From: Saccharopolyspora thermophila
Lineage (GTDB): Bacteria > Actinomycetota > Actinomycetes > Mycobacteriales > Pseudonocardiaceae
Assembly (NCBI RefSeq): GCF_014646075.1
Contig: NZ_BMMT01000009.1
Location: forward strand, 124,001 to 188,000
Direction: 5' to 3'
DNA length: 64,000 nt
Position numbers and translations under genes: made by a program. This document shows, piece by piece, positions 2,816 to 52,368 of this stretch. Below the pieces are notes generated by a model. It made no database searches and had not been told where the DNA came from. It was given only the letters and a program-made list of their open reading frames with translations. Numbering within the stretch: position 1 is the stretch's first letter; each line of letters starts with the position of its first letter.

Positions 2816-3871
2816 TCAGCCCCGTTTAAGACGCTCTTGATCTCCGCGCAGCAGGATGCGGATCTCGTGCACCGCCGCGCGGCCGGCCCGGCTGGCGCCG
2901 ATGGTGCTCGCCGACGGACCGTAGCCCACCAGGTGCAACCGCGGTTCGGCCACCACGCGGGTGCCTTCGACGCGGATGCCGCCGCCCGCCTCGCGCAGGT
3001 GCAGCGGTGCCAGGTGGGCGATGGCGGGCCGGAAACCGGTCGCCCACAGGATCACGTCCGCGCGCTGGGCGCGGCCGTCGGCCCACACCACGCCGGTGCT
3101 GGTGATCCGCGCGAACATCGGCTGCCGGTCCAGCACGCCGCGCTGCTGGGCGGCGCGCACTGCCGGGGTGCCGGGCAGGCCGGTCGCGCTGACGACGCTG
3201 CCGGGCGGCAGGCCCACCCGAACCCGGCGTTCCACCTCGGCGACCGCGGCGCGGCCGTCGAACTGACCGGTGGTGAACCGCGGGGGCCGCCGCGTCACCC
3301 ACGTCGTGGTGGCGACCTCGGAGATCTCCAGCAGGTGCTCCACCGCGGAAATACCGCCGCCGACCACGACGACGTGCTGTCCCCGGAACTCCTGCGGGTC
3401 GCGGTAGTCCGCGGTATGCAGCTGGCGGCCGGTGAACAGGTGCCGACCGGGGTAGTGCGGCCAGAACGGGTTGTCCCAGGTGCCGGTCGCGTTGAGGACG
3501 GCGCGGGCCGCCCAGGTGCCCGCCGAGCTGTCCACCAGCAGCCGCTCGCCGCCGTCGCGCACGGCGTCGACCTTCACCGGTCGCAGCACGGGGAGCTGCC
3601 TGTCGTGTTCGTAGCGTCCGAAGTAGTCGACGATCACGTCGGCGGCAGGGCGGGCGCCGTCGGTCTCCGGTAGGGGGCTGCCGGGCAGGTCGTGGATGCC
3701 GTGCACGCCGCCGAGGCGCAACGACGGCCAGCGGTGTCGCCACGCGCCGCCCGGTCCGTCACCGCGGTCGAGGACCACGTGCTCGATCCCGGTCCGCTGC
3801 AGGTGGTGCGAGGCGGTCAGCCCGGCCTGACCGGCTCCGATGACCACGACGTCGATGCGTTTCACGTCCAC
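2816..3871 (-). CDS. FAD/NAD(P)-dependent flavoprotein oxidoreductase (CzcO/FMO-like)
   Basis: A 351-residue flavoprotein. The N-terminal FAD site is VVVIGAGQAGLTASHHL, and the second dinucleotide site is VVVVGGGISAVEHLLE (about 170-185). ILWATGFRP near 280 is the ATG motif of this group. The size and two GxGxxG sites match the CzcO/YpdA-like, flavin-containing monooxygenase-like proteins of actinomycetes; the substrate is unknown. It is convergent with the P450 operon, so it is not that operon's reductase by position. Start ATG at 3871. Confidence 0.88.
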   Translation of the reverse strand: MDVKRIDVVVIGAGQAGLTASHHLQRTGIEHVVLDRGDGPGGAWRHRWPSLRLGGVHGIHDLPGSPLPETDGARPAADVIVDYFGRYEHDRQLPVLRPVKVDAVRDGGERLLVDSSAGTWAARAVLNATGTWDNPFWPHYPGRHLFTGRQLHTADYRDPQEFRGQHVVVVGGGISAVEHLLEISEVATTTWVTRRPPRFTTGQFDGRAAVAEVERRVRVGLPPGSVVSATGLPGTPAVRAAQQRGVLDRQPMFARITSTGVVWADGRAQRADVILWATGFRPAIAHLAPLHLREAGGGIRVEGTRVVAEPRLHLVGYGPSASTIGASRAGRAAVHEIRILLRGDQERLKRG

Positions 3872-40270: not shown

Positions 40271-40963
40271 TCAGGTTCCGGCCGCGGGGTCGAGGTAGGG
40301 GCCCCCGGCCACGCCGAGGGCGCGGACCGTGCCGAGGAGGTGTTCGCGCAGCCGCGTCTTGGCCAGCTCGGCGTCGCCGTCGCGGATCGCTTGGGCGAGC
40401 TGGGTGTGCTGGTGGGTGATGCGGGGCCGGGCGGCGTGGGTGCGGGCGGTGGCGGTGATGCGCATCTGCTTGTCGCGCAGGGCGTTGTAGAGGTCGGCCA
40501 CCACCGGGTTGCCCGCGGCGGCGACGAGGGTGGCGTGGAAGGCGCGGTCTGCCTCGTGCATGTCGGCGTCGCTGAGGCCGGTGGCGTCGCAGGCCGGGTG
40601 CGCGGCCAGTTCGGTGCCGACGGCGGTCATCACCTCGGCGCCCTGCGCGGCCAGTTTGTCGATGGCGAAGGTCTCCAGGGCCAGGCGGGCCTCGACCACC
40701 GCCCGCGCCTCGGTCGGTGTGACGGGGACGACGAGCGCGCCTCGTTTCGGGTACAGCCGCAGGAACCCCTCGGTCTGCAGCCGGAGGAAGGCTTCCCGCA
40801 CCGGGGTTCGTGACATCTGCAGCGCGCTGGCCACCTCGCCTTCGGACAGCAGGTCGCCGTCGGGGTATCGGCCGTCCAGCAGGCCGGCTTTGACGTACTG
40901 GTAGGCGCGGTCGGCGGCGGGTGTGGCGGGGGACGCGGTTGGGCGTGGTGTTGCGCTCGACAC
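40271..40963 (-). CDS. GntR-family (FadR/FCD) transcriptional regulator 1
   Basis: 230 residues. The winged helix (LLDGRYPDGDLLSEGEVASA, SRTPVREAFLRLQTEGFL) and the FCD ligand domain are clear; the acid and histidines that bind metal in FCD proteins are in ADMHEADRAFHATLV and TRLREHLLG. It is divergent from the MFS transporter gene, and a 27-bp palindrome lies between. It most likely represses the transporter in the absence of a small organic acid. Confidence 0.93.
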   Translation of the reverse strand: MSSATPRPTASPATPAADRAYQYVKAGLLDGRYPDGDLLSEGEVASALQMSRTPVREAFLRLQTEGFLRLYPKRGALVVPVTPTEARAVVEARLALETFAIDKLAAQGAEVMTAVGTELAAHPACDATGLSDADMHEADRAFHATLVAAAGNPVVADLYNALRDKQMRITATARTHAARPRITHQHTQLAQAIRDGDAELAKTRLREHLLGTVRALGVAGGPYLDPAAGT

Positions 40964-40984
40964 GAGGGCATCGTACTTCCACCC

Positions 40985-41011
40985 ATCTTGTATCTAAGAT
41001 AGATACAAGAT
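40985..41011. promoter_or_regulatory. Perfect 11-5-11 palindromic operator between GntR 1 and MFS
   Basis: ATCTTGTATCT (40985-40995), spacer AAGAT, AGATACAAGAT (41001-41011). The TTGTAT...ATACAA arms are typical of FadR-subfamily GntR operators. A -10-like TAAGAT (40995-41000) lies inside. It is 22 bases from the GntR start and 24 from the MFS start, so one bound dimer could control both. Confidence 0.85.
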
Positions 41012-41034
41012 TGTGTGGGAGGGGTCTGAAGAAC

Positions 41035-42276
41035 GTGTCCGCGACGGTGTTGACCGACGCGCGACCGGATCGGCGACACCGCATGGCGTGGCTGATCTGG
41101 GGCGTCGGCGCCCTCTGCTACTGCACCGCGATGTTCCACCGCGCCGGCCTCGGCGTGGCCGCACCCGAGGCGATCCAGCGCTTCGGTGCCGGGCCGGCGG
41201 TGCTGTCGCTGTTCTCCGCGCTGCAACTGGGCGTCTACCTGGCGCTGCAGGTGCCCTCGGGGCTGCTGGCCGACCGGCTGGGCCCCCGCAAGGTGATCAC
41301 CGGCGGCATGGCGGCACTGGCGGCGGGCTCGGCGGTGTTCGCGCTCAGCGGCTCGATCCTCGGCGGCATCGCCGGGCGGATGCTCATCGGCTTCGGCGAC
41401 GCCTTCATGTTCACCAACGTGCTGCGGCTGGCCGCGCACTGGTTCCCGCCGCACCGCTACGGCCGGGTCGCGGCGATCACCGGGCTCGCCGGCGGGCTCG
41501 GCCAAGTCGCTTCCACACTGCCGCTCGGCCTCGCCCTGCACGGGCTTGGATGGGTCCCGACGTTCGTGGGCGCGGCGGTGCTGACCGGGGCGCTGGCGGT
41601 CCTGGCCGCGGTGGTGATCCGCGACCGGGCCGAGCCGGCCGAACCCGCCGCGCAGCCGCGCGAGCCGATCGGCCGCACGCTGCGCCACGTGACCGCCCAG
41701 CGCGGCACCCGGCACGCCTTCTGGGTGCACTTCGTGCTGATGGCGCAGTTCCTGGCGATGACCACGTTGTGGGGCGGGCCGTGGCTGACCGCCGCGCAGG
41801 GCCGCGGCACGACCGAGGTCGGTTCGCTGCTGCTGGTCAGCGTGGTGGGCTTCATCGCCGGATCGTGGTTTGCCGGGCAGTACGTGGCCGGGCGGCCGCT
41901 GCGGCGCGATCGCTACACGCTGGGTCTGTCGGCGGCTGTGGTGGCGGTGTGGGCGCTGCTGGTCGGCTGGCCAGGGATGCTGCCAACACCGGTGCTGGTG
42001 GTGGCGCTGGTCGTCATCGGCGCCGGCGGCGGGGGCGCGATGCTGGCCTTCGACGCGGCACGGCTGGCCAACGCCGAGCACCGCTCCGGGACCGCCTCGG
42101 GCGTGGTGAACATGGGCGGGTTCACCGCGGCGGTGCTGATCCAGCTGCTGGTCGGTGGGGTGCTGCAGGCGGTCGCGTTTCTGCCCGCGGCGCTGGCCTA
42201 CCGGTGGGCGTTCGCGCCGGTTCTGATGCTGCTGGTGGCGGGCGTGCTGGCCCAGTGGCGGCTACGGCAGCGGTGA
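41035..42276 (+). CDS. Major facilitator superfamily transporter
   Basis: About 413 residues with twelve membrane segments. The loop 2-3 motif GLLADRLGPRKVI is the MFS signature, and GRMLIGFGDAFMFTNVLRLA resembles the conserved segment of organic-anion/sugar-phosphate symporters. The GTG start at 41035 has GGGAGGGG upstream. Controlled, by position, by GntR 1. It may import the compound degraded by the enzymes that follow, but the aldehyde-dehydrogenase-like gene downstream is 106 bases away and the link is inference. Confidence 0.9.
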   Translation: MSATVLTDARPDRRHRMAWLIWGVGALCYCTAMFHRAGLGVAAPEAIQRFGAGPAVLSLFSALQLGVYLALQVPSGLLADRLGPRKVITGGMAALAAGSAVFALSGSILGGIAGRMLIGFGDAFMFTNVLRLAAHWFPPHRYGRVAAITGLAGGLGQVASTLPLGLALHGLGWVPTFVGAAVLTGALAVLAAVVIRDRAEPAEPAAQPREPIGRTLRHVTAQRGTRHAFWVHFVLMAQFLAMTTLWGGPWLTAAQGRGTTEVGSLLLVSVVGFIAGSWFAGQYVAGRPLRRDRYTLGLSAAVVAVWALLVGWPGMLPTPVLVVALVVIGAGGGGAMLAFDAARLANAEHRSGTASGVVNMGGFTAAVLIQLLVGGVLQAVAFLPAALAYRWAFAPVLMLLVAGVLAQWRLRQR

Positions 42277-42382
42277 GCTCGCCCGGCCAGCCGCCGTCAC
42301 CGCCGGGCCGGTCGGGATAGGGTCGACTGACGCAAGGCGGCACCCGACCGGCCGGCGGCCGGCCCAGCGAGGGAGGTTCTCG

Positions 42383-43822
42383 GTGACCACGGCGCTGCAA
42401 CTGCACAACTTCGTCGGCGGCGAACGCACCGGCACCCTGGCCGGGGAGACCCTGCCGCTGGTGGACCCGAGCACCGGTGAGCAGTACGGGACCTCGCCGC
42501 TGACGCGGTGGATGGACGTCGACGCCGCGATGGAGGTGGCCTCCTCAGCGTTTGAGACGTGGTCGCAGACCACGCCGCGGCAACGGCAGCGGGTGCTGCT
42601 CGACGTCGCCGACGCGGTCGAGCAGCGAGCCGAGGAGCTGGTGGCCGCCGAGTGCCGCAACACGGGCAAGCCATGGTCGGTGGTGCGCGACGACGAGCTG
42701 CCGATGGCGGTAGATCTGATCCGGTTCTACGCCGGAGCCGCGCGGGTGCAGGAGGACGGGGCCGGCGGCGAGTACCAGCAGGGGCACACGTCGTTCTCGC
42801 GGCGGGAACCGATCGGGGTGTGCGCGCAGGTGACGTCATGGACACATCCGCTGCTCCTGGCGGCGGCGAAGGTCGCCCCGGCGCTGGCGGCGGGCAACGC
42901 GGTGGTGCTCAAACCGGCCGAGACGACCCCGGTGAGCACGGCGTTGCTGGTGGAGATCGCCGGGGAGTTCCTGCCGGCGGGAGTGTTGAACCTGATCTGC
43001 GGGGACCGCGACAGCGGGCGCGCGATGGTGGCACACGAGGTGCCGGGGATGTTCTCGATCACCGGGACCGTGCGCTCCGGGATGGAGGTGGCCGGGTCAG
43101 CGGCGGCCGACCTCAAGCGGGTGCACCTGCAGTTGGGGGGCAAGGCACCGGCGGTGGTGTTCGACGACGCCGACGTGCCGCGGGCGGCGCGGCGGATCGC
43201 GGCGGCGGCGTTCGGCAACGCAGGACAGAGCTGCACGGCGGCCAGCCGGGTGCTGGCGGGGCCGGGCGTGTTCGACGAGGTCGTGGCGGCGCTGGCCGAG
43301 TGGGCGGTGGCGATGCGACCAGGCCCGCCGCAGGACCCGGACGCGGCGTTCGGGCCGTTGAACAGCCAGGGACAGTTGGAGATCGTGCAGGCCCACCTGG
43401 AGCGGTTGCCCGAGCACGCGCAGATCGTGGCCGGCGGGCAACGCAAAGGCGAACGCGGGTACTTCCACGAGGCGACGGTGGTCGCGGGGGTGTCGCAGGA
43501 GGACGAGCTGGTGCAGAACGAGGTGCTGGGGCCGGTGGTGACGGTGCAGCGCTTCGGCAGCGAGGACGAGGCGGTGGAGCTGGCCAACGGAGTCCGCTAT
43601 GGGCTGGTGGCCAGCGTGTGGACCCGGGACCACGCGCGGGCGATGCGGATGTCGCGGCGATTGCAGGCGGGCACGGTGTGGATCAACACCCATCACCCGC
43701 TGGCGGCGGAGATGCCACACAGCGGTTTCAAGCACTCGGCGTCGGCGCGGGACTTCGGGCGCTACGGCCTGGAGGAGTACAGCCGCATCAAGCACGTGAT
43801 GACCGCGTGGGACCAGCAGTAA
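42383..43822 (+). CDS. Aldehyde-dehydrogenase-fold protein with altered catalytic residues
   Basis: 479 residues, aligned along its whole length with the betaine/gamma-aminobutyraldehyde dehydrogenase group. The nucleophile is present (C284, GNAGQSCTAASR). But the oxyanion asparagine of the WNxP motif is changed (W153-T-H-P156), and the general-base glutamate of ELGGK is glutamine (Q250, HLQLGGKAP). The FTGS motif reads ITGT. It may be a dehydrogenase with unusual chemistry, a thioester- or binding-only protein, or inactive. GTG 42383 follows GAGGGAGG. It ends at a hairpin against the amidase gene. Confidence 0.88.
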   Translation: MTTALQLHNFVGGERTGTLAGETLPLVDPSTGEQYGTSPLTRWMDVDAAMEVASSAFETWSQTTPRQRQRVLLDVADAVEQRAEELVAAECRNTGKPWSVVRDDELPMAVDLIRFYAGAARVQEDGAGGEYQQGHTSFSRREPIGVCAQVTSWTHPLLLAAAKVAPALAAGNAVVLKPAETTPVSTALLVEIAGEFLPAGVLNLICGDRDSGRAMVAHEVPGMFSITGTVRSGMEVAGSAAADLKRVHLQLGGKAPAVVFDDADVPRAARRIAAAAFGNAGQSCTAASRVLAGPGVFDEVVAALAEWAVAMRPGPPQDPDAAFGPLNSQGQLEIVQAHLERLPEHAQIVAGGQRKGERGYFHEATVVAGVSQEDELVQNEVLGPVVTVQRFGSEDEAVELANGVRYGLVASVWTRDHARAMRMSRRLQAGTVWINTHHPLAAEMPHSGFKHSASARDFGRYGLEEYSRIKHVMTAWDQQ

Positions 43823-43830
43823 CCCCGCAC

Positions 43831-43854
43831 GCCGGGTGCCTGGCCACACCCGGC
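43831..43854. terminator. Hairpin between the aldehyde-dehydrogenase-like and amidase genes
   Basis: GCCGGGTG (43831-43838) pairs with CACCCGGC (43847-43854) around an 8-base loop, between convergent stops. Confidence 0.65.
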
Positions 43855-43905
43855 ACCGCAGGCCACCCGCCACGACGCCCGCCAGCGTCCAGCAGTCGCA
43901 GAGCG

Positions 43906-45318
43906 TCACGCGGCGGGGTGGTGGGTGCGGGGCCAGGGCCGGGCCTGTTCGTAGGCGCGGGCGGCGCGCAGGACCAAAGCGTCGGCGTGGCGCGGGCCCA
44001 CGATCTGCAGGCCGATCGGCAAGCCCGCACTGGTGTGTCCACACGGGACGCTGGCGGCGGGTTGCTGGGTCATGTTGAATGGATAGGTCAACGGGGTCCA
44101 GCTCGTCCACCGCGGGTGCGCTGACCCGGCGGGCACCTCGCGGCCGGCTTCGAACGCGGGGATGGGCACCGTGGCGGTCAGCAACACATCGTGGGTCTGG
44201 TGGAAGGCGCCCATGCGCTGACCAAGCAGCATGCGGGTGTTGGTGGCCTCCAGATAGTCCTGGGCGGAGTAGGTCAGGCCCTGCTCGCAGATCTCACGCA
44301 GGCCGGGGTCGAGTTGTGCACGCTGGCCGGCGGTGAGGTGCTCGGTGGACTTCGCGGCGCCGGCGAACCACAGCACGTGGAAGTCCTCGACCGGGTCGGC
44401 GAAACCGGGATCGGCGTGTTCCACGACCGCACCGAGCGATTCGAAGACCTCCGCGGCGGCGGTGACGGCAGCGGCCACCTCCGGGTCAACGGGGATGCCG
44501 AAACCGAGATCGACACTGACGGCGATGCGCAGGCCGCGCACACCGGAGTCCAGACCCTCGCAGAACGACGCCGCCGGTGGTTGTAGCGCCGACCAGTCAC
44601 GCACGTCCGGTTCGCACAGCACGTCCAGCAGCAGCGCGGTGTCGGTGACGGTGGTGGTCATCGGCCCGGCGTGAGCGAGGGTGCCGTAGGGGCTGGCCGG
44701 AAAGTGCGGGATACGGCCGTAGGTGGGTTTGAGCGCGACGATGCCGCAGAAGGCCGCGGGGATACGCACCGATCCGCCGCCGTCGGTGCCGATCGCCAGC
44801 GGGGCCATGCCCGCGGCGAGCGCCGCTGCCGCGCCGCCACTGGAACCGCCCGCGGTGCGCGCGGTGTCCCAGGGGTTGCGGGTGATGCCGTGCAGCGGAC
44901 TGTCGGTGACACCTTTCCAGGCCAGCTCCGGGGTGGTGGTCTTGCCGACGAACACGGCGTTGTGCTCACGCAGGCGAGCCACGGCGGGAGCGTCGACACT
45001 CCACTGCTGGTGGGGGTTGATGGTGCGGGAGCCGCGCAGGGTCGGCCAGCCGGCGGTGAGGAAGATGTCCTTGATCGAGACCGGCACGCCGTCCAGCCGC
45101 CCGGCGGGCTGGCCGCGGTGCCAGCGTTGTTCGGACTGGCGGGCCTGCCGCAGCGCCCGGTCGGCGTCGATGAGACAGAACGCGTTGAGGGCGGGGTCGG
45201 CCTCGGTGATGCGCCGCAGGGTCGCCTCGGTGGCCTCCACCGGGGACAGCTCGCCGCGGGCGTAGGCGTCGAGCAGCTCGGTGGCGGTGAGATCGGCGGC
45301 GGTGCGTTCGGCTGGCAT
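43906..45318 (-). CDS. Amidase-signature family hydrolase
   Basis: 470 residues. The Ser-cisSer-Lys triad is visible: K83 (VSIKDIF), S159/S160 (GGSSGGAAAAL) and S183 (GTDGGGSVRIPAAF). It hydrolyses a carboxamide, releasing ammonia or an amine; the substrate is not predictable within this large family, and GatA can be set aside because no GatB or GatC is near. Its ATG directly follows the stop of the upstream 2-hydroxyacid dehydrogenase gene with no gap, so the two form one operon driven from 46.4 kb. Confidence 0.93.
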   Translation of the reverse strand: MPAERTAADLTATELLDAYARGELSPVEATEATLRRITEADPALNAFCLIDADRALRQARQSEQRWHRGQPAGRLDGVPVSIKDIFLTAGWPTLRGSRTINPHQQWSVDAPAVARLREHNAVFVGKTTTPELAWKGVTDSPLHGITRNPWDTARTAGGSSGGAAAALAAGMAPLAIGTDGGGSVRIPAAFCGIVALKPTYGRIPHFPASPYGTLAHAGPMTTTVTDTALLLDVLCEPDVRDWSALQPPAASFCEGLDSGVRGLRIAVSVDLGFGIPVDPEVAAAVTAAAEVFESLGAVVEHADPGFADPVEDFHVLWFAGAAKSTEHLTAGQRAQLDPGLREICEQGLTYSAQDYLEATNTRMLLGQRMGAFHQTHDVLLTATVPIPAFEAGREVPAGSAHPRWTSWTPLTYPFNMTQQPAASVPCGHTSAGLPIGLQIVGPRHADALVLRAARAYEQARPWPRTHHPAA

Positions 45319-46296
45319 TCAGTGCTCCGTTCCGCTGACGTATCCCCGGTGTTTGTCGACGACGTTGCGCAGCTCGGCGCCGCTGATGTAGGCGCGCAGG
45401 TTGGTCAGGAACACATCGACGAGTTCGTCGATCCAGCCGACGGTGTCACCGGACATGTGCGGGGAGACCAGCACACCGGGCAACTCCCACAGTGGTGAGG
45501 ACTCGGGCAGCGGTTCGGCTGGGAAAACGTCCAGCGCCGCGCCGGCCAGGTGCCCGGCACGCAGCGCGGCGACCAGGTCGGCTTCCACGACCAGTTCACC
45601 GCGGCCGACGTTGATCAGCCGGGCGTTCGGGCGGCAGCGGGCCAGCACGTCGGCATTGATCAGGCCCTTGGTCTGTTCGGTGAGCGGGGCGGCGAGCACG
45701 ACGTAGTCGAAGGCGCCGATGACGTGGGCAAGGTCGCTGGAGGCGTGCACGTCGCCGAAGTCGGGGTCGCCGCTGCGGGCGACGCGGCCGGCGCCGCAGA
45801 CACGCATCCCGGCGGCGGTGAGCTGGCGGGCGATGGCGCGGCCGATGGGGCCGGTGCCCACCACCAGGACGCTTGTGCCCTCGATGCGTTCGGTTTCCCG
45901 GTGGCGCCACTGCCTGCGGTCCTGCAGCCGCAGCGTGGTGTGCAGATCCTTGGCGAAGGCCAGCACGATGCCCAGGACGTATTCGGCCATGGGCCGGTCG
46001 AACACGCCGCGGGAGTTGGTGAGCACGACGGGGGAGTCGACCAGGGCGGGAAACAGCAGCCGGTCGACCCCGGCGCTGGCGGTGTGGATCCAGCGCAGCG
46101 CGTCGGCGTGCGGCCAGGCCGCGGCGATGGCGTCGGTGCGGAAGTCCCAGACGAACAGCACCTCAGCGCCGGGCAACGCGGTGGGCAGCTCCTCGGCGGT
46201 GGCCAGGCGCAGGTTGGCGTGATCCCCGATGCGGGTCACCGGCTCCGGCGCAGTGCCGCCATGCAGGGCGACAACGGTGGGCGTGCGGTTGATCAT
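45319..46296 (-). CDS. D-isomer-specific 2-hydroxyacid dehydrogenase
   Basis: 325 residues, NAD(P)H-dependent. The dinucleotide site is VVGTGPIGRAIARQL (147-152 core), and the catalytic set is R232 (NVGRGELV), E261 (DVFPAEPLP) and H280 (SPHMSGDT). It resembles the glyoxylate/hydroxypyruvate reductase branch. ATG 46296. First gene of the minus-strand operon, with the amidase; the promoter overlaps operator site 1. Confidence 0.93.
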   Translation of the reverse strand: MINRTPTVVALHGGTAPEPVTRIGDHANLRLATAEELPTALPGAEVLFVWDFRTDAIAAAWPHADALRWIHTASAGVDRLLFPALVDSPVVLTNSRGVFDRPMAEYVLGIVLAFAKDLHTTLRLQDRRQWRHRETERIEGTSVLVVGTGPIGRAIARQLTAAGMRVCGAGRVARSGDPDFGDVHASSDLAHVIGAFDYVVLAAPLTEQTKGLINADVLARCRPNARLINVGRGELVVEADLVAALRAGHLAGAALDVFPAEPLPESSPLWELPGVLVSPHMSGDTVGWIDELVDVFLTNLRAYISGAELRNVVDKHRGYVSGTEH

Positions 46297-46412
46297 GGGC
46301 CTGACCTTAGGGGCGGTGGGGGCGCGGGGCCGGGCAACGGTGATCGGTCGGCGTGCCGGTTAAAAGTGTGTTTCCCCCAGCCTGGCGGGGAAAACGTACT
46401 TAGCAGGGGGCA

Positions 46413-46452
46413 TTGACACGCTAGAAACCGTTCGTAGGATTGTCAACAATCC
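46413..46452. promoter_or_regulatory. Interleaved divergent promoters over GntR operator site 1
   Basis: Plus strand: -35 TTGACA (46413-46418), -10 TAGGAT (46435-46440), spacer 16, leading to DUF3830. Minus strand: -35 TTGACA (46446-46441), -10 TAGCGT (46423-46418), spacer 17, leading to the 2-hydroxyacid dehydrogenase. The palindrome GGATTGT-CA-ACAATCC (46437-46452) covers the plus -10 and the minus -35, so one bound repressor would close both. Confidence 0.8.
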
Positions 46453-46551
46453 ACGGGTACCCTCGGCGGACGAGGTGACTCCTGGCCCTGGCGCCAGGAC
46501 CGGAGGAGATCAACCAGCTTTCCCCACTCCTTGCGAACGGAAAAGATCACG

Positions 46552-47046
46552 ATGCCCAGGTACCTGTCGATCACGCTGGAAAAGCGCGGCGTGTCGTGCG
46601 TGGCCGAGCTGCTGGACAAGGACGCGCCGCGGACCTGCGAGGCGGTGTGGCAGGCGCTGCCGCTGGTCGGGCCGGTGCACCACGCGAAGTACGCGCGCAA
46701 CGAGATCTACACGATGGTGCCGCGGTTCGCGGTGGACGAGCCCGGCCAGGAGAACCCGACGGTCACCCCGATCCCCGGTGACGTCGTGTACTTCTCCTTC
46801 GACGGCGGCATGCTCGACCGCGCGTTCAAGGAGGAGAAGAACATCCACCAGCTGCCCGGTGTGATCGACCTGGCCCTCTTCTACGGCCGCAACAACCTGC
46901 TGCTCAACGGCGACGTGGGCTGGGTGCCGGGCAACGTCTACGCCACCATCGTGGAGGGGCTGGACCGGATGGCCGAGGCGGGCAACGACGTCTGGCGGTC
47001 CGGCAGCGTCGGCGAGACCCTCCGCTACGAACGCCACGAGGGCTGA
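46552..47046 (+). CDS. DUF3830 family protein
   Basis: 164 residues of a family of unknown function; a cyclophilin-like beta fold has been assigned to a member, from memory. Conserved-looking stretches are VWQALPLVGPVHHAKYA, ARNEIYTMVPRF and PGDVVYFSFDG. No catalytic motif can be named. ATG 46552 is preceded by GGAAAAG. It is the first gene of a two-gene operon with a maleate-isomerase-like protein. Confidence 0.85.
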   Translation: MPRYLSITLEKRGVSCVAELLDKDAPRTCEAVWQALPLVGPVHHAKYARNEIYTMVPRFAVDEPGQENPTVTPIPGDVVYFSFDGGMLDRAFKEEKNIHQLPGVIDLALFYGRNNLLLNGDVGWVPGNVYATIVEGLDRMAEAGNDVWRSGSVGETLRYERHEG

Positions 47047-47057
47047 CGGGGGAGACC

Positions 47058-47816
47058 ATGCCGCCTGACTTCCTCGGGGCGGTATCGGGCCCAAACCCGC
47101 AGCGCGGCGTGGGGGTGATCGCTCCGTTTGACCTGGCGTTGGACCGCGAGCTGTGGCGGTGGACTCCGCCGGAGGTGTCGCTGTATCTGACGCGCACGGC
47201 GTTCGTGCCGGTGCCGGTAACCGTCGAGCAGGCCCACCTGGTCTCCGACGAGGCAGCGGTGCACGGTGCGACACGCGACCTGCTGGTACCCGAACCGGAG
47301 GTGGTGGCCTACGCCTGCACCTCCGGCAGCTTCGTCAACGGCGCGACCGGTGAGCGTGCGCTGGTGGAGGTGATGGTGCAGGCGGGGGCACCCGCGGCGG
47401 TGACGACCTCGGGTGCGCTGGTGCAGGCGTTGCGGACACTGGGCGTGGGCCGCATCGCGATCGCCACACCGTACGTGGCGGCCATGACCGAGCGGCTGCA
47501 GGGCTTTCTCGACGAGCACGGGGTCGAGGTGGTCACCAGCGTGGGGCTGGGGCTGCTGGGCCAGATCTGGAAGGTCAGCTACCGGCAGGTGGTCGACATC
47601 GTGCGCTCGGCGGACCGGCCGGAGGCCGAGGCGATGTTCATCAGCTGCACGAACCTGCCCACCTACGACATCATCGGGCCGCTGGAGAAGGAGCTGGGCA
47701 AGCCGGTGCTGACGGCCAACCAGGTCACCATCTGGGCGGCGCTCCGCGTGATGGGGCTGCAGGCGGTGGCCCCGGAACAGCGGTTGATGCAGGTCGTCGA
47801 CGCGCCGGCCGCATGA
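47058..47816 (+). CDS. Maleate isomerase/arylmalonate decarboxylase/Asp-Glu racemase family protein, two-cysteine type
   Basis: 252 residues. Both catalytic cysteines of the superfamily are present: C87 (YACTSGSF) and C197 (ISCTNLPTYDII). LGKPVLTANQVTIWAALR is the typical C-terminal signature. Maleate cis-trans isomerase, Asp/Glu and hydantoin racemases and arylmalonate decarboxylase share this fold; the two-cysteine form favours an isomerase or racemase. It starts 11 bases after DUF3830. Confidence 0.9.
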   Translation: MPPDFLGAVSGPNPQRGVGVIAPFDLALDRELWRWTPPEVSLYLTRTAFVPVPVTVEQAHLVSDEAAVHGATRDLLVPEPEVVAYACTSGSFVNGATGERALVEVMVQAGAPAAVTTSGALVQALRTLGVGRIAIATPYVAAMTERLQGFLDEHGVEVVTSVGLGLLGQIWKVSYRQVVDIVRSADRPEAEAMFISCTNLPTYDIIGPLEKELGKPVLTANQVTIWAALRVMGLQAVAPEQRLMQVVDAPAA

Positions 47817-47862
47817 CGATCCCACCCAGCACCAACCAGACCCCCGCGACCGTTACGGTAAC

Positions 47863-47874
47863 ATTGTCAACAAT
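47863..47874. promoter_or_regulatory. GntR operator site 2 (ATTGTCAACAAT)
   Basis: An exact copy of the 12-base core, 102 bases before the next gene. Just upstream is another small palindrome, GTTAC-G-GTAAC (47852-47862). It would control the second isomerase-like gene and the GntR 2 gene, giving autoregulation. Confidence 0.8.
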
Positions 47875-47975
47875 CGACCGGTCGTTTCGGTGTTGGCCAT
47901 ATGGTCAGTGTTGGCGGTGACGCCGTGTGCGGTGGTGGTGCACACCCAACATCGAGCAAAGAAGGGAGTTCTCCG

Positions 47976-48728
47976 GTGCCGCACACCGCAGGCATTCTCT
48001 ACCCCGGCCACAGCGCCGAAGACGACTACCCGGCCCTCGAGCGGCTGCTCGGTGATGGCGTGCGGCTGCCGCTGGTGCACACGCTGATGCGCGAGGACGC
48101 CCACCGGGTCGACGCGCTGCTGGACATCGGCTCCGAGGAGGTGCTCGCCGACGGCGCCCGCCAGCTGCTGGGGCAGCACCGCGTGCAGTCGGTGATCTGG
48201 GCGTGCACCAGTGGCAGCTTCATCTTCGGCTGGCAGGGCGCGCGCGAGCAGGTGGAGAGGCTGCAGGCGGTCACCGGCCTGCCGACCTCCAGCACGTCGT
48301 GGGCGTTCGTGCACGCCGCGGCCGCCCTCGGGGTGCACCGGGTGGCGGTGGCCGCGACCTACCCGGCCGACGTGGCCGCGAAATTCGTGGAGTTCCTCAA
48401 GGCCGCCGACCTGGAGGTGGTGCGGCAATCCAGCCGGGGCATCATCACCGCCGCCGAGGTGGGGCGCCTGCAGCGCGAGGAGGTGCTGGCCTTCGCCGCG
48501 GCCAACGACGACGACCGGGCCGATGCGCTGCTGATGCCGGACACCGCGCTGCACACCGCGGCGTGGCTGGAGGATCTGGAGGACCGGCTCGGCAAACCCG
48601 TGCTCACCGCCAACCAGGTCAGCGCCTGGGAGGCGCTGCGGCTGGCCGGTGATCACCGGCCGCACGACGGAGTGGGAACGCTGTTCCGCACGGCAACAGC
48701 AGGGGAGCGCGAGCACTCCCCGGGATGA
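47976..48728 (+). CDS. Maleate isomerase/Asp-Glu racemase family paralogue, single-cysteine type
   Basis: 250 residues, a paralogue of the previous protein. C77 is kept (IWACTSGSF), but the second cysteine is lost: the matching segment reads LLMPDTALHT instead of SCTNL. LGKPVLTANQVSAWEALR is kept. Arylmalonate decarboxylase also has one cysteine, but the other one, so this is a different reduced form. GTG 47976 is behind GAAGGGAG. Its stop overlaps an ATG of the GntR gene (ATGA). Confidence 0.88.
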   Translation: MPHTAGILYPGHSAEDDYPALERLLGDGVRLPLVHTLMREDAHRVDALLDIGSEEVLADGARQLLGQHRVQSVIWACTSGSFIFGWQGAREQVERLQAVTGLPTSSTSWAFVHAAAALGVHRVAVAATYPADVAAKFVEFLKAADLEVVRQSSRGIITAAEVGRLQREEVLAFAAANDDDRADALLMPDTALHTAAWLEDLEDRLGKPVLTANQVSAWEALRLAGDHRPHDGVGTLFRTATAGEREHSPG

Positions 48729-48742
48729 GGAGATGGTGTCAG

Positions 48743-49435
48743 GTGCTCGGGACCGACGAGCAGAACCAGCAGCCCGGTGAACTGGAGCCGGTGCAGCGCA
48801 AGTCGACCGCGGCGATCGTGGCTGACCAGCTGCGTGCGGCGATCATGTACGGTTCGCTGCCGCCGGGCAGTCAGCTCGGGGAGGCCGAGCTGGCCGCCCG
48901 GCTCGGGGTCAGCCGCGGACCGCTGCGCGAGGCGATGCAGCGGCTGGTCGCCGAGGGGTTGCTGCGCAGCGAACCGCACCGCGGGTTGTTCGTGATGACC
49001 CTGGACGCCGACGACGTCCGCGACATCTACCTGGCGCGGCTGGCGGTGGAACGCGCCGCGTGCGAGCAGATCGTGCGTCACCACCGGGTGGAGGCGGTGG
49101 CGGAGCTGACCGCGGCACAGAGCCGGATGGTGGCCGCGGCAGGCAAGGGCGATCCGATCGAGCTGGCCGACGCCGACCAGGAGTTCCACGAGACCCTGGT
49201 GCGGGTCTCCGGCAGCCCGCGGCTGCAGCGCATGGCGCAGACGCTGCTGGTGGAGAAGCGGATGTGCCTGACGGCGCTGCAGGACAAGTACCACGCGGAC
49301 GTGCAGGCGCTCGTCGACGAGCACAAGGGGCTGGTGGACGCGATCGAGGCCGGTGACGAGCAGCTGCTGCTGCAACGCCTGCAAGCCCACATGAACGACG
49401 CCCTGAACCGCCTCAACGGCTCCATGACCAGCTGA
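48743..49435 (+). CDS. GntR-family (FCD) transcriptional regulator 2
   Basis: 230 residues: winged helix (LRAAIMYGSLPPGSQLGEAE, LGVSRGPLREAMQRLVAEGL) and an FCD ligand domain (ADADQEFHETLVRVSGS, ALVDEHKGLVDAI, LLQRLQAHMNDAL). It is probably the protein that binds the three ATTGTCAACAAT sites, since GntR-FCD proteins favour such TTGT-N-ACAA palindromes and this is the only regulator inside the site-bearing interval. GTG 48743 is behind GAGGAG; ATG 48725 overlapping the previous stop is an alternative. Confidence 0.92.
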   Translation: MLGTDEQNQQPGELEPVQRKSTAAIVADQLRAAIMYGSLPPGSQLGEAELAARLGVSRGPLREAMQRLVAEGLLRSEPHRGLFVMTLDADDVRDIYLARLAVERAACEQIVRHHRVEAVAELTAAQSRMVAAAGKGDPIELADADQEFHETLVRVSGSPRLQRMAQTLLVEKRMCLTALQDKYHADVQALVDEHKGLVDAIEAGDEQLLLQRLQAHMNDALNRLNGSMTS

Positions 49436-49455
49436 AGGCACCCAGGCAGCGGGAA

Positions 49456-49504
49456 CGACTGCGGGGTGCCTTCGCCAACCTCGGCTGAAGGCACCCCGCA
49501 GTCG
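49456..49504. terminator. 18-bp perfect hairpin with an alternative upstream partner
   Basis: CGACTGCGGGGTGCCTTC (49456-49473) pairs perfectly with 49487-49504, loop 13. The sequence GCTGAAGGCACCC occurs both at the gntR stop (49431-49443) and in the right arm (49484-49496), so the left arm could pair with either. It separates convergent genes. Confidence 0.85.
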
Positions 49505-49519
49505 GGGATCGGATCGCGG

Positions 49520-51001
49520 TCACAGGCCGCCCACGGCGACGTACTTGGTTTCCAGGAACTCCTCGATGCCCAGCTTGCCGCCCTCGCGGCCCAGACCGGA
49601 GTGCTTGACCCCGCCGAACGGCGCCGCCGGGTTGGACACGATGCCCTGGTTGAGGCCCACCATGCCGCTCTCCAGCGCCTCGGCGACCCGCAGGGCGCGC
49701 TGCACATCGCGGGTGTAGAGGTAGCTGACCAGGCCGTACTCGGTGTTGTTGGCCTGGGCGATGACGGCCTGCTCGTCGGTGAACGCGGTGATCGGCGCGA
49801 CCGGTCCGAAGATCTCCTCCCGGCTCAGCCGCGCGGCCAGTGGCACCCCGGTGAGCACCGTGGGCTGGTAGAAGTAGCCCTCGCCGTCGCGCGGGGAGCC
49901 GCCGGTGACGATCTCGGCGCCGAGCCGCACGGCGTCGTCGACCAGGTCGGTGACCTTGCCCAGTTGCGTGTCGTCGATCAGTGGCCCCACCTGCACGTCG
50001 TCGGTGACGCCGCGGCCCACCCGCAACCGGCTCATCCGCTCGGCCAGCCGGCGGGAGAACTCCTCGACGACGTCGGCGTGCACGTAGAACCGGTTGGCCG
50101 CGGTGCACGCCTCCCCGATGTTGCGCATCTTCGCCAGCATCGCGCCGTCGACCGCGGCGTCGAGGTCGGCGTCGTCGAAGACCACGAACGGGGCATTGCC
50201 GCCCAGTTCCAGCGACACCTTCAGCACCTGCTCGGCGGACTGCTCGATGAGTTTGCGGCCGACCGCGGTGGAGCCGGTGAACGACAGCTTGCGGGCCCGG
50301 CCGTCGCGGATCATCGGCTCCATCAGCCGACCCGCGCTGTGGGAGGTGACGACGTTGAGCACGCCGTCGGGCAGCCCGGCCTCCTGCAGGATTCCGGCCA
50401 GTGCCAGCATCGACAGCGGTGTCTGGTGGGCGGGCTTGATCACCGAGGTGCAGCCCGCGGCGATGGCCGGGCCGATCTTGCGGGTGCCCATGGCCATCGG
50501 GAAGTTCCAGGGGGTGATCAGCAGCGCCGGGCCGACCGGCTGGCGCATCACCAGAAACCGGCCGGTGCCGTTGGGGGCCACCGCGTAGTCGCCGCCGATG
50601 CGCACGGCTTCCTCGGAGAACCAGCGGAAGAACTCCGCGGCGTAGGTGACCTCGGCACGCGACTCGGTCAGCGGTTTGCCCATCTCCAGGGTCATCAGCA
50701 GCGCCAGGTCCTCGTGGCGCTGCATGATCAGCTCGAAGGCGCGGCGCAGGATCTCGCCGCGTTCGCGCGGTGGGTGCGTGGCCCACCGGGGTTGGGCGTC
50801 CGCGGCGGCGGCCAGCGCCGCCAGGCCGTCCTCGGGGGAGGCGTCGGCCACCGAGCACAACGCCCGCCCGGTTGAGGGGTCCTCCACGTCGAAGGTGCGT
50901 TCGCCCGTGGCGGGCCGCCACGTGCCGCCGATGAGCAGCTGTTTGGGTGCGGCGTCGACGACAGTGGCCTCGCGGGGGTGCTGTTGGGTTGAGATGGTCA
51001 T
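49520..51001 (-). CDS. gabD: Succinate-semialdehyde dehydrogenase-like aldehyde dehydrogenase
   Basis: 493 residues with an intact active site: N166 (TPWNFPMAM), E265 (SLELGGNAPF) and C299 (GEACTAANR). MRQPVGPALLITPWNFP and the GGVKHSGLGREGG end are typical of GabD, which oxidises succinate semialdehyde to succinate. The name is by family only. It is divergent from an aminotransferase gene, with operator site 3 between, a layout that suggests oxidation of the aldehyde made by that transaminase. Confidence 0.9.
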   Translation of the reverse strand: MTISTQQHPREATVVDAAPKQLLIGGTWRPATGERTFDVEDPSTGRALCSVADASPEDGLAALAAAADAQPRWATHPPRERGEILRRAFELIMQRHEDLALLMTLEMGKPLTESRAEVTYAAEFFRWFSEEAVRIGGDYAVAPNGTGRFLVMRQPVGPALLITPWNFPMAMGTRKIGPAIAAGCTSVIKPAHQTPLSMLALAGILQEAGLPDGVLNVVTSHSAGRLMEPMIRDGRARKLSFTGSTAVGRKLIEQSAEQVLKVSLELGGNAPFVVFDDADLDAAVDGAMLAKMRNIGEACTAANRFYVHADVVEEFSRRLAERMSRLRVGRGVTDDVQVGPLIDDTQLGKVTDLVDDAVRLGAEIVTGGSPRDGEGYFYQPTVLTGVPLAARLSREEIFGPVAPITAFTDEQAVIAQANNTEYGLVSYLYTRDVQRALRVAEALESGMVGLNQGIVSNPAAPFGGVKHSGLGREGGKLGIEEFLETKYVAVGGL

Positions 51002-51070
51002 GGCAACGGCGGACCCTTCTGGCTTGCACGGTGGACAGCGTTGGCCGGTGATGGTTGCATGTCACCGGAG

Positions 51071-51082
51071 ATTGTCAACAAT
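51071..51082. promoter_or_regulatory. GntR operator site 3 (ATTGTCAACAAT)
   Basis: Third exact copy of the core, between the divergent dehydrogenase (start 51001) and aminotransferase (start 51118). On the minus strand the site contains TTGACA (51078-51073), usable as a -35 box, but no good -10 box is found 16-18 bases away. Confidence 0.8.
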
Positions 51083-51117
51083 CCTACATTCGTACGCTTG
51101 GATACCTGGAGTTGATC

Positions 51118-52368
51118 ATGGCTGAGCTCTCGCCGGTCCTGAAGCAGGCCACGCCGGTCCTGGCCGCACGAGGCGAAGGCGTCTACCTCTACGACGAGCA
51201 GGACCGCCGCTACCTGGACTTCACCGCCGGGATCGGCGTCACCAGCACGGGCCACTGCCACCCGCGCGTGGTCGAAGCCGCCCAGCGCCAGGTGGGTACC
51301 CTCATCCACGGCCAGTACACGACCGTGATGCACCGGCCGCTTCTGCAGCTGACCGAACGGCTCGGCGAGGTGCTACCCGAGGGCCTGGACCGGCTGTTCT
51401 ACGTCAACTCCGGCAGCGAAGCGGTGGAGGCCGCGGTGCGGCTGGCCCGCCAGGCCACCGGGCGGCAGAACATCGTGGCCTTCCAGGGCGGCTTCCACGG
51501 CCGCACCATGGGCGCGGCCGCCCTGACCAGCTCCGGCACCAAGGTGCGCGCCGGCATCGGCCCGCTGATGCCCGGCGTGGTGTTCACCCCGTTCCCCGAG
51601 CCCTACCGGCAGCACTGCAGCCAGGCCGAGGCGGTGCGGTGGGCCCTGGCCGAGTTCGACCACCTGCTGGTCACCCTCAGCTCCCCCCGCGACACCGCGG
51701 CCATCATCGTCGAACCCGTCCTCGGCGAGGGCGGCTACATCCCGGCCCCACCGGAGTTCCTGCGCGGCCTGCGGGAACGCGCCGACCAGCACGGCATCCT
51801 GCTCATCGTCGACGAGGTGCAGACCGGCGTCGGGCGCACCGGCAGGTTCTGGGGTCATGACCACGCCGCCATCCGCCCCGACATTCTCATCACCGCCAAG
51901 GGCCTGGCCAGCGGCTTCCCGCTGTCGGCGATCGCCGCCGGCGAGGACCTCATGGCCACGGCGTGGCCGGGCTCGCAGGGCGGCACCTACGGCGGCAACG
52001 CGGTCGCGGCCGCCGCGGCCATCGCCACCCTCGACGTGGTGCGCGACGAAAAGCTCGTCGACAACGCCGCCGAGCAGGGCGCCCGGCTGCAGGAGGGACT
52101 GCGCAAGGTCGCCGCCGAGCACCCGGTGATCGGCGACGTGCGCGGCCTGGGCCTGATGATCGGCAACGAGTTCACCACCCCCGACGGGCTGCCGGACACC
52201 GCCACCGCCACCCGCGCACACCAGGCCGCCGCCGAACGCGGCCTGCTGCTGCTGACCTGCGGCCCGCACGGCAACGTGGTGCGGATGATCCCGCCGCTGA
52301 TCGTCACCGCCGAGCAGGTCGACGACGCGGTGGCACGCTGGGCCGAGGCACTCGCCGCCATCGCCTGA
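51118..52368 (+). CDS. gabT: Class III PLP aminotransferase, 4-aminobutyrate type
   Basis: 416 residues, acetylornithine/4-aminobutyrate aminotransferase family. Cofactor residues are D232 (IVDEVQTGVGRTG) and K261 (ITAKGLASGFP); FVNSGSEA appears as YVNSGSEAVEAAVRLAR. It should move an omega-amino group to 2-oxoglutarate or pyruvate, producing a semialdehyde. ATG 51118 has TGGAG upstream. The exact substrate (4-aminobutyrate, beta-alanine or another) cannot be told from sequence. Confidence 0.9.
   Translation: MAELSPVLKQATPVLAARGEGVYLYDEQDRRYLDFTAGIGVTSTGHCHPRVVEAAQRQVGTLIHGQYTTVMHRPLLQLTERLGEVLPEGLDRLFYVNSGSEAVEAAVRLARQATGRQNIVAFQGGFHGRTMGAAALTSSGTKVRAGIGPLMPGVVFTPFPEPYRQHCSQAEAVRWALAEFDHLLVTLSSPRDTAAIIVEPVLGEGGYIPAPPEFLRGLRERADQHGILLIVDEVQTGVGRTGRFWGHDHAAIRPDILITAKGLASGFPLSAIAAGEDLMATAWPGSQGGTYGGNAVAAAAAIATLDVVRDEKLVDNAAEQGARLQEGLRKVAAEHPVIGDVRGLGLMIGNEFTTPDGLPDTATATRAHQAAAERGLLLLTCGPHGNVVRMIPPLIVTAEQVDDAVARWAEALAAIA

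What the first reader, a model, noticed from the sequence alone, without database searches (positions are those of the whole stretch)
46437..51082. Three identical ATTGTCAACAAT palindromes define a local GntR regulon
The exact 12-base palindrome occurs at 46439-46450, 47863-47874 and 51071-51082, each in an intergenic promoter region and none seen in coding sequence. The three sites would control 2-hydroxyacid dehydrogenase-amidase, DUF3830-isomerase, isomerase-GntR 2, the SSADH-like gene and the class III aminotransferase. The only regulator within this interval is the GntR-FCD protein at 48743-49435, and TTGT...ACAA palindromes are typical GntR-FCD targets. The regulon assignment is inference.
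Basis: partly seen in the sequence, partly recalled or inferred. Interest (0 to 1): 0.75.

Follow-up and report, generated by a model that had tools for sequence, protein, structure and literature searches.

The report
Conserved GntR operator controlling catabolic genes
A soil actinomycete carries one short DNA "switch" sequence in front of a set of breakdown genes of unknown substrate, kept nearly letter-perfect in its relatives, and the regulator encoded in the same cluster very probably works that switch.

Summary
ATTGTCAACAAT lies at all three places, between genes, and only once more exactly in the 5.36-Mb Saccharopolyspora genome. It is an imperfect palindrome; relatives show the full element, GATTGTC(A/G)ACAATC. 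Site 1 is kept in 40 of 40 family loci and 46 of 46 divergent pairs outside the family. In 390 family genomes the 14-mer and a GntR2 ortholog occur together in 239, GntR2 alone in 17, the 14-mer alone in 19. The regulon is not only local: the fourth copy precedes an unlinked Glu/Leu/Phe/Val dehydrogenase gene, conserved in 21 of 21 genus orthologs. Site 1 sits on two interlocked divergent promoters, abutting one -10 and containing the other's -35. Best reading: GntR2, a FadR-type regulator, represses these promoters by occlusion and regulates itself. Its operator matches that predicted for Pseudomonas aeruginosa PrpR/PmiR. Not shown: binding, direction of control, effector, pathway. Paralogous GntRs sit near the same motif elsewhere, so another binder is not excluded.

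The parts
46438..46451 (.). Operator 1, GATTGTCAACAATC, between the divergent hydroxyacid-dehydrogenase and DUF3830 operons
   Evidence: site in 40 of 40 family loci and 46 of 46 divergent pairs outside the family
46413..46440 (+). Predicted promoter of DUF3830 operon: TTGACA (46413-46418), 16 nt, TAGGAT (46435-46440); the -10 runs into the operator
   Evidence: full pattern in 62 of 65 sites, 0 of 1300 with shuffled flanks
46418..46446 (-). Predicted promoter of the hydroxyacid dehydrogenase-amidase operon: TTGACA inside the operator (46446-46441), 17 nt, TAGCGT (46423-46418)
   Evidence: 64 of 65 sites, 26 of 1300 with shuffled flanks
47862..47875 (.). Operator 2, CATTGTCAACAATC, upstream of the second isomerase-like gene and GntR2
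   Evidence: 36 of 40 family loci
47859..47864 (+). Predicted -10 (TAACAT) running into operator 2; no recognisable -35
   Evidence: TANNNT at this place in 50 of 52 sites
51070..51083 (.). Operator 3, GATTGTCAACAATC, between divergent SSADH-like and class III aminotransferase genes
   Evidence: all 35 of the 40 family loci that have the aminotransferase (L089 and L090 in a form with one outer arm changed)
43909..45318 (-). Amidase (PRK06169 equivalog), second gene of the leftward operon
45322..46296 (-). D-2-hydroxyacid dehydrogenase, first gene of the leftward operon
46552..47043 (+). DUF3830 protein (the one solved-structure match is 3kop)
47058..47813 (+). Arylmalonate decarboxylase/maleate isomerase-like protein 1
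47976..48725 (+). Arylmalonate decarboxylase/maleate isomerase-like protein 2
48743..49435 (+). GntR2, GntR-FCD (FadR subfamily) regulator; proposed binder of the operators (ATG at 48725 is an alternative start)
49523..51001 (-). Succinate-semialdehyde dehydrogenase-like aldehyde dehydrogenase
51118..52365 (+). Class III aminotransferase, closest solved structure by sequence E. coli-type 4-aminobutyrate aminotransferase 1sf2

Best explanation
The sites are operators of GntR2, a GntR-FCD (FadR-subfamily) regulator encoded in the cluster. A GntR2 dimer binds the 14-bp element GATTGTC(A/G)ACAATC. At site 1 it covers the end of the -10 of the DUF3830 promoter and the -35 of the hydroxyacid dehydrogenase promoter together, so one bound dimer closes both. 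At site 2 it covers the end of the -10 of the isomerase 2-gntR2 operon (autoregulation). At site 3 it controls the SSADH-like and aminotransferase genes, and in trans a fourth site covers the -35 of a Glu/Leu/Phe/Val dehydrogenase gene. A carboxylic-acid intermediate of the pathway probably releases it through the FCD domain. Shown by sequence comparison: sites, conservation, overlap with predicted promoters, co-occurrence with GntR2. Inferred: binding, dimer, repression, effector.
For: Site 1 in 40/40 family loci and 46/46 divergent pairs outside the family; aminotransferase site in 35/35 and 43/45. Motif/GntR2 table in 390 family genomes: both 239, GntR2 only 17, motif only 19, neither 115, Fisher p about 7e-59; by genus (motif in the majority of a genus's genomes) 31/32 with GntR2 against 2/14 without, p about 3e-8 (tallied by hand from the tables). 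In three genomes the aminotransferase gene is on another contig than the cluster and has the site (L123-L125). All 80 named GntR2-centred loci hold at least one motif with at most 1 mismatch. Fourth site conserved 21/21 in the genus, and all 30 conserved copies have TANNNT 18 nt after the TTGACA in the operator. Recognition helix VSRGPLREA is invariant in 26 sequences (GntR2 and 25 orthologs down to 58% identity). PmiR/PrpR shares SRGPLREA and its published predicted operator is ATTGTCGACAAT, with gel shift of the prpR upstream region (PMC9765439, passages). The 2-nt GT-AC spacing and one central site per divergon are known FadR-subfamily habits (PMC4494728, section 10 and passages).
Against: No binding, expression or ligand data. 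The same motif stands near other FCD-GntR genes (L119, L120, L121, L127, L130) and in near form beside a paralog in this genome (L005), so the motif alone does not name the binder. A conserved HTH is usual in this family, and proteins 60-70% identical may bind distinct motifs (PMC4494728), so helix identity is weak evidence. GntR2 without an exact 14-mer in 17 of 256 genomes; those whose loci I looked at have changed versions. The trans site is absent in 10 of 19 more distant dehydrogenase orthologs. Site 2 is absent in 4 of 40 loci. Site 3 fits no recognisable promoter. Activation at some sites is not excluded.
Confidence: 0.82

Rival explanations
1. The sites are true GntR-FCD operators, but another GntR-FCD paralog in the genome, for example the one at C4 beside GATTGTTGACAGTC, is the main binder or shares the sites with GntR2.
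For: Paralogs lie within about 150 bp of the same motif in L119, L120, L121, L127 and L130 (5 of 9 extra loci examined); own-genome near-site at C4:75857 beside an FCD-GntR with helix SRGTLREA. Two genera without a GntR2 ortholog have the motif in most genomes.
Against: The motif tracks GntR2 orthologs across genera, and GntR2 sits beside the cluster in 40/40 family loci.
Confidence: 0.1
2. GntR2 binds the sites but acts wholly or partly as an activator, at least at site 3 where no recognisable promoter overlaps the operator.
For: No promoter pattern around site 3 (0 of 61 in either direction); some FCD regulators activate (CitO, PMC4746285, abstract in the search listing).
Against: Sites 1 and 2 and the trans site lie on predicted core promoter elements, where a bound dimer should block polymerase.
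Confidence: 0.15
3. The conserved element is only a promoter element (a -35), not an operator.
For: TTGACA lies inside the element at site 1 (64 of 65) and at all 30 conserved trans sites.
Against: At sites 2 and 3 the centre drifts (CA, CG, TG) and often no longer makes TTGACA while both arms stay; a -35 does not need 12-14 fixed palindromic bases.
Confidence: 0.03
4. Chance repetition of an A+T-rich word.
For: The loose core TTGTNNACAA is at background in the genome (17 against 18 control places).
Against: Shuffles, genome count and conservation across families.
Confidence: 0.001

Closest known systems
PrpR/PmiR (PA0797) of Pseudomonas aeruginosa, GntR-FCD repressor of the methylcitrate operon
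   Same: Fold (7xp1 and 7xp0, Foldseek E 3.3e-9 and 4.4e-9), recognition residues SRGPLREA, predicted 12-bp operator ATTGTCGACAAT upstream of its own gene (PMC9765439, passages).
   Different: About 26% identity; no methylcitrate gene among the 11 genes examined here; multi-site regulon of other enzymes in Actinomycetes.
[quoted passage not shown] 2015
   Same: TTGT/ACAA boxes, 2-nt spacing, one site in the middle of a divergon (PMC4494728, section 10 and passages).
   Different: The parts read name no group with this gene content; their supplementary list was not open to me.
HypR of Streptomyces coelicolor (SCO6294)
   Same: Actinomycete GntR-FCD repressor, autoregulated, several scattered targets, site over its own -10 (PMC6608401, passages).
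   Different: Experimentally found motif CTNTGC(A/C)ATGTCAC is of unclear symmetry; hydroxyproline pathway.
Bidirectional promoters of Escherichia coli (Warman et al. 2026)
   Same: Two promoters on one short stretch, open to one polymerase at a time (PMC12825309, abstract and passages).
   Different: Those share one -10; here each -10 meets the other strand's -35, with an operator at one junction.

Membership tests
GntR family, FadR (FCD) subfamily | N-terminal GntR winged helix (PF00392) | tested here: met
   E 5.5e-19, 68 bits, cut-off 27
GntR family, FadR (FCD) subfamily | C-terminal all-helical FCD domain (PF07729) | tested here: met
   E 1.3e-23, 84.2 bits, cut-off 24.3; helical C-terminal domain in the model, mean pLDDT 89.3; best solved matches are GntR regulators, several titled VanR
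GntR family, FadR (FCD) subfamily | Palindromic site with TKGT/ACMA boxes, GT-AC spacing 2-3 nt | tested here: met
   ATTGT-CA-ACAAT, spacing 2 nt, against PMC4494728; that GntR2 binds it was not tested
GntR family, FadR (FCD) subfamily | Metal-binding Asp and His residues of the FCD domain (which residues these are is recalled) | tested here: inconclusive
   D135, H139, H184, H206 invariant in alignments of 26 and 34 sequences; no metal or geometry tested
GntR family, FadR (FCD) subfamily | Sequence-specific DNA binding released or changed by a small acid | not testable with these tools
   needs purified protein
PrpR/PmiR orthologous group | Linked to methylcitrate-cycle genes | tested here: not met
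   None of the 11 genes examined at 40274-52365 is such a gene
PrpR/PmiR orthologous group | Operator ATTGTCGACAAT | tested here: met
   CG-centred form is common at sites 2 and 3 in relatives; the window has CA centres. Works like it, is not filed as it
Phosphonate regulator phnR_burk (TIGR03338) | Reaches the family cut-off | tested here: not met
   126.4 bits against 271.5

The most novel reading that the evidence does not exclude
Operator 1 is the hub of a conserved one-polymerase switch: two divergent promoters are interlocked so that each -10 meets the other strand's -35, and a single GntR2 dimer closes both at once. The lopsided centre of an otherwise palindromic operator is kept because it doubles as the -35 TTGACA. 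This switch runs an undescribed catabolic regulon (DUF3830, two arylmalonate-decarboxylase-like enzymes, amidase, hydroxyacid dehydrogenase, 4-aminobutyrate-type enzymes and an unlinked amino-acid dehydrogenase) in several actinomycete families.
Probability: 0.5. Interest if true: 0.6.

Novelty: new member of a known kind. Interest (0 to 1): 0.47.

Why it matters
It gives a regulator, operator and target list for an actinomycete gene set, found here in several families, whose substrate I could not identify, including a DUF3830 protein of unknown function. In the library searched, DUF3830 and the 12-mer ATTGTCAACAAT each appear in no paper, and a joint search for GntR, arylmalonate decarboxylase, amidase and gene cluster found none. 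Because such regulators usually answer to a pathway metabolite, screening ligands on GntR2 is a direct way to the substrate. The interlocked promoter pair is a compact natural case for asking how a repressor controls two promoters that compete for polymerase.

Tried and rejected
GntR1 (40274-40963) as the local regulator: rejected, because it was not found in the fetched stretches of 15 of 40 loci that keep site 1 (some stretches are cut by contig ends). The loose core TTGTNNACAA as a genome-wide marker: rejected, at background. Of its 17 places, 4 are the exact 12-mer; of the other 13 I looked at 11, and none has A and T at both outer places; their genes were not annotated. Extra neighbour genes as clues to the substrate (selected open frames only): no consistent transporter or enzyme; the pathway stays open. 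PccD of S. erythraea as a possible earlier description: the listing names PccD a TetR regulator in a Mycolicibacterium title; not followed further. A consensus promoter around site 3: none found. A paper for this regulon: none seen in the listings. Of the 4 papers with ATTGTCGACAAT I read only passages of the PrpR paper; the other three were judged unrelated by title. The PmiR paper itself is not held, so its content is known here only through its title and citations and PDB titles.

Limits of counts: the loci were chosen by me from search lists for genus spread or as possible exceptions, not at random, and relatives are not independent; many genus loci are the same genomes as, so I did not add them up. 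The genome tally 239/17/19/115 and the genus tally 31/32 against 2/14 were made by hand from the printed tables. Site classes were built only from places where a site with at most 2 mismatches exists within 500 bp of a gene, so presence rates are taken. For one search I used 50 of the 80 loci, dropping 30 judged by name to be of the window's own family; 46 of the 50 had the divergent pair. One GntR2 protein (L080) was dropped because the translated match held a stop. The seven-genome rest of the GntR2-only group was looked at in 3 genomes (L107, L108, L113).
Full report
What was checked. The 12-mer ATTGTCAACAAT is exactly at 46439, 47863 and 51071 on the + strand. The genome has 4 exact copies and 1 copy with one mismatch. 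The word is not a perfect palindrome: arms ATTGT and ACAAT are symmetric, the centre CA is not. Comparison shows a longer element, GATTGTC(A/G)ACAATC, perfect when the centre is CG. The loose core TTGTNNACAA is not enriched in the genome (17 places, control 18).

Surroundings. From 40 to 52 kb: GntR-FCD 1 (-), MFS transporter, aldehyde dehydrogenase, amidase (-), D-2-hydroxyacid dehydrogenase (-), DUF3830, two arylmalonate decarboxylase/maleate isomerase-like proteins, GntR-FCD 2, SSADH-like dehydrogenase (-), class III aminotransferase. The one solved-structure match of DUF3830 is 3kop; the aminotransferase is closest to 4-aminobutyrate aminotransferase 1sf2.

Conservation. In 40 loci around DUF3830 orthologs of the same family, site 1 is present in 40, site 2 in 36, and site 3 in all 35 that have the aminotransferase; GntR2 is beside the cluster in 40, GntR1 was found in 25. 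In a second set of 40 loci, some picked as possible exceptions, sites persist where genes are rearranged: two genomes with no DUF3830 at the cluster (L091, L092), DUF3830 behind the aminotransferase (for example L097-L100), and the aminotransferase on a different contig from the cluster in three genomes (L123-L125), each time with a site just upstream. In 50 named loci outside the family (chiefly Actinomadura, Nocardiopsis, Streptomonospora and kin), 46 have the divergent pair and all 46 have a site with at most 1 mismatch; 43 of 45 aminotransferase genes have one. All 80 named loci hold at least one such motif.

Link to GntR2. Across 390 family genomes the 14-mer occurs in 258 and a GntR2 ortholog (E at most 1e-40) in 256: both 239, GntR2 only 17, motif only 19, neither 115 (Fisher test). 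By genus, the motif is in most genomes of 31 of 32 genera with GntR2, and of 2 of 14 without. The one GntR2-bearing exception, genus g7 (Actinopolyspora by contig match), has the 5'-C form of the site upstream of gntR2 in the loci examined (L093-L095, L148, L149, L151-L153, L157). Three motif-only genomes (G293, G334, G338) do hold DUF3830 and may lack GntR2 through incomplete assembly. The reversed-pattern control hit 6 of 390 genomes. The N-terminal 72 residues vary less than the rest of GntR2 (mean entropy 0.51 against 1.17 in 66 orthologs and GntR2), and the recognition helix is invariant in 26 sequences; this is usual in the family and so weak evidence. Against a unique assignment, FCD-GntR paralogs stand near the same motif in L119, L120, L121, L127 and L130 of nine extra loci examined, and beside a one-mismatch site in this genome.

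A fourth target. The fourth exact copy (C7:25202) lies 279 bp upstream of the codon I took as the start of a Glu/Leu/Phe/Val dehydrogenase gene. It is conserved in 21 of 21 genus orthologs, the window's genome included (76-100% identity; one of the 22 genomes has no ortholog), and in 9 of 19 more distant orthologs (66-81%), absent in the other 10 and in 7 weaker matches (43-48%). All 30 copies read ATTGTTGACAAT towards the gene, and all 30 have TANNNT exactly 18 nt after the TTGACA.

Promoter anatomy. Site 1 lies on two interlocked predicted promoters. Rightward: TTGACA 46413, 16 nt, TAGGAT 46435-46440, whose end lies in the operator. Leftward: TTGACA inside the operator, 17 nt, TAGCGT. In 65 sites of this class the rightward pattern is full in 62 (0 of 1300 with shuffled flanks), the leftward in 64 (26 of 1300). 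Outside the family: 39 and 46 of 46, both in 39. A separate consensus scan of 45300-51400 found one promoter-like site, the rightward one. At site 2 a TANNNT runs into the operator in 50 of 52, without a -35. At site 3 no such pattern was found in 61. The centre is CA in 64 of 65 sites of class 1 and mixed at sites 2 and 3 (26 CA, 20 CG, 3 TG, 3 others of 52; 30 CA, 26 CG, 5 TG of 61), which fits a double duty as operator and -35 where TTGACA is needed.

Mechanism. A GntR-FCD dimer bound on core promoter elements should block polymerase; a site on the -10 is described for HypR autorepression (PMC6608401, passages). PrpR/PA0797 of P. aeruginosa, a GntR-FCD repressor, has the predicted operator ATTGTCGACAAT (PMC9765439, passages). 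The structure titled PmiR (the two names are tied through PA0797) matches the GntR2 model, and its recognition residues SRGPLREA equal those of GntR2. Suvorova et al. list PrpR among 2-nt-spacing groups and find single divergon sites central. Thus repression with autoregulation is the best reading; the inducer is unknown. 4-Aminobutyrate-type enzymes suggest that the pathway ends at succinate, with the unlinked dehydrogenase possibly recycling glutamate, but this is inference.

Verdict. It is a new member of a known kind, a GntR-FCD regulon, with an unusually tight promoter-operator arrangement and an unknown pathway.

Noticed in passing
window 51030-51061: Two further blocks, GGTGGACAGCG and TGATGGTTGCATG, are largely invariant in 22 Saccharopolyspora between the SSADH-like gene and operator 3; possibly the SSADH promoter or a second regulator's site.
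   Followed up: no
window 47058-48725: The first isomerase-like protein keeps two cysteine motifs (ACTSGSF, SCTNLPT), the second only the first, so their chemistry may differ.
   Followed up: no
L005 765-1512 (genome C4:75857): Another FCD-GntR gene with a one-mismatch site GATTGTTGACAGTC beside it; a candidate for cross-binding.
   Followed up: partly
L159, L161, L165, L166, L168, L170, L184, L192, L200, L210: Ten of 46 loci outside the family carry two operators in the hydroxyacid dehydrogenase-DUF3830 gap.
   Followed up: partly
L091 4904-7932: In a genome of genus g18 the place of the DUF3830-isomerase genes holds a DUF5058 protein, a protein without Pfam match and an M20 peptidase-like gene, with the operator kept at 3827.
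   Followed up: partly
window 40274-43819: A second FCD-GntR, an MFS transporter and an aldehyde dehydrogenase lie next door without the site; GntR1 was found in 25 of 40 fetched family stretches.
   Followed up: no
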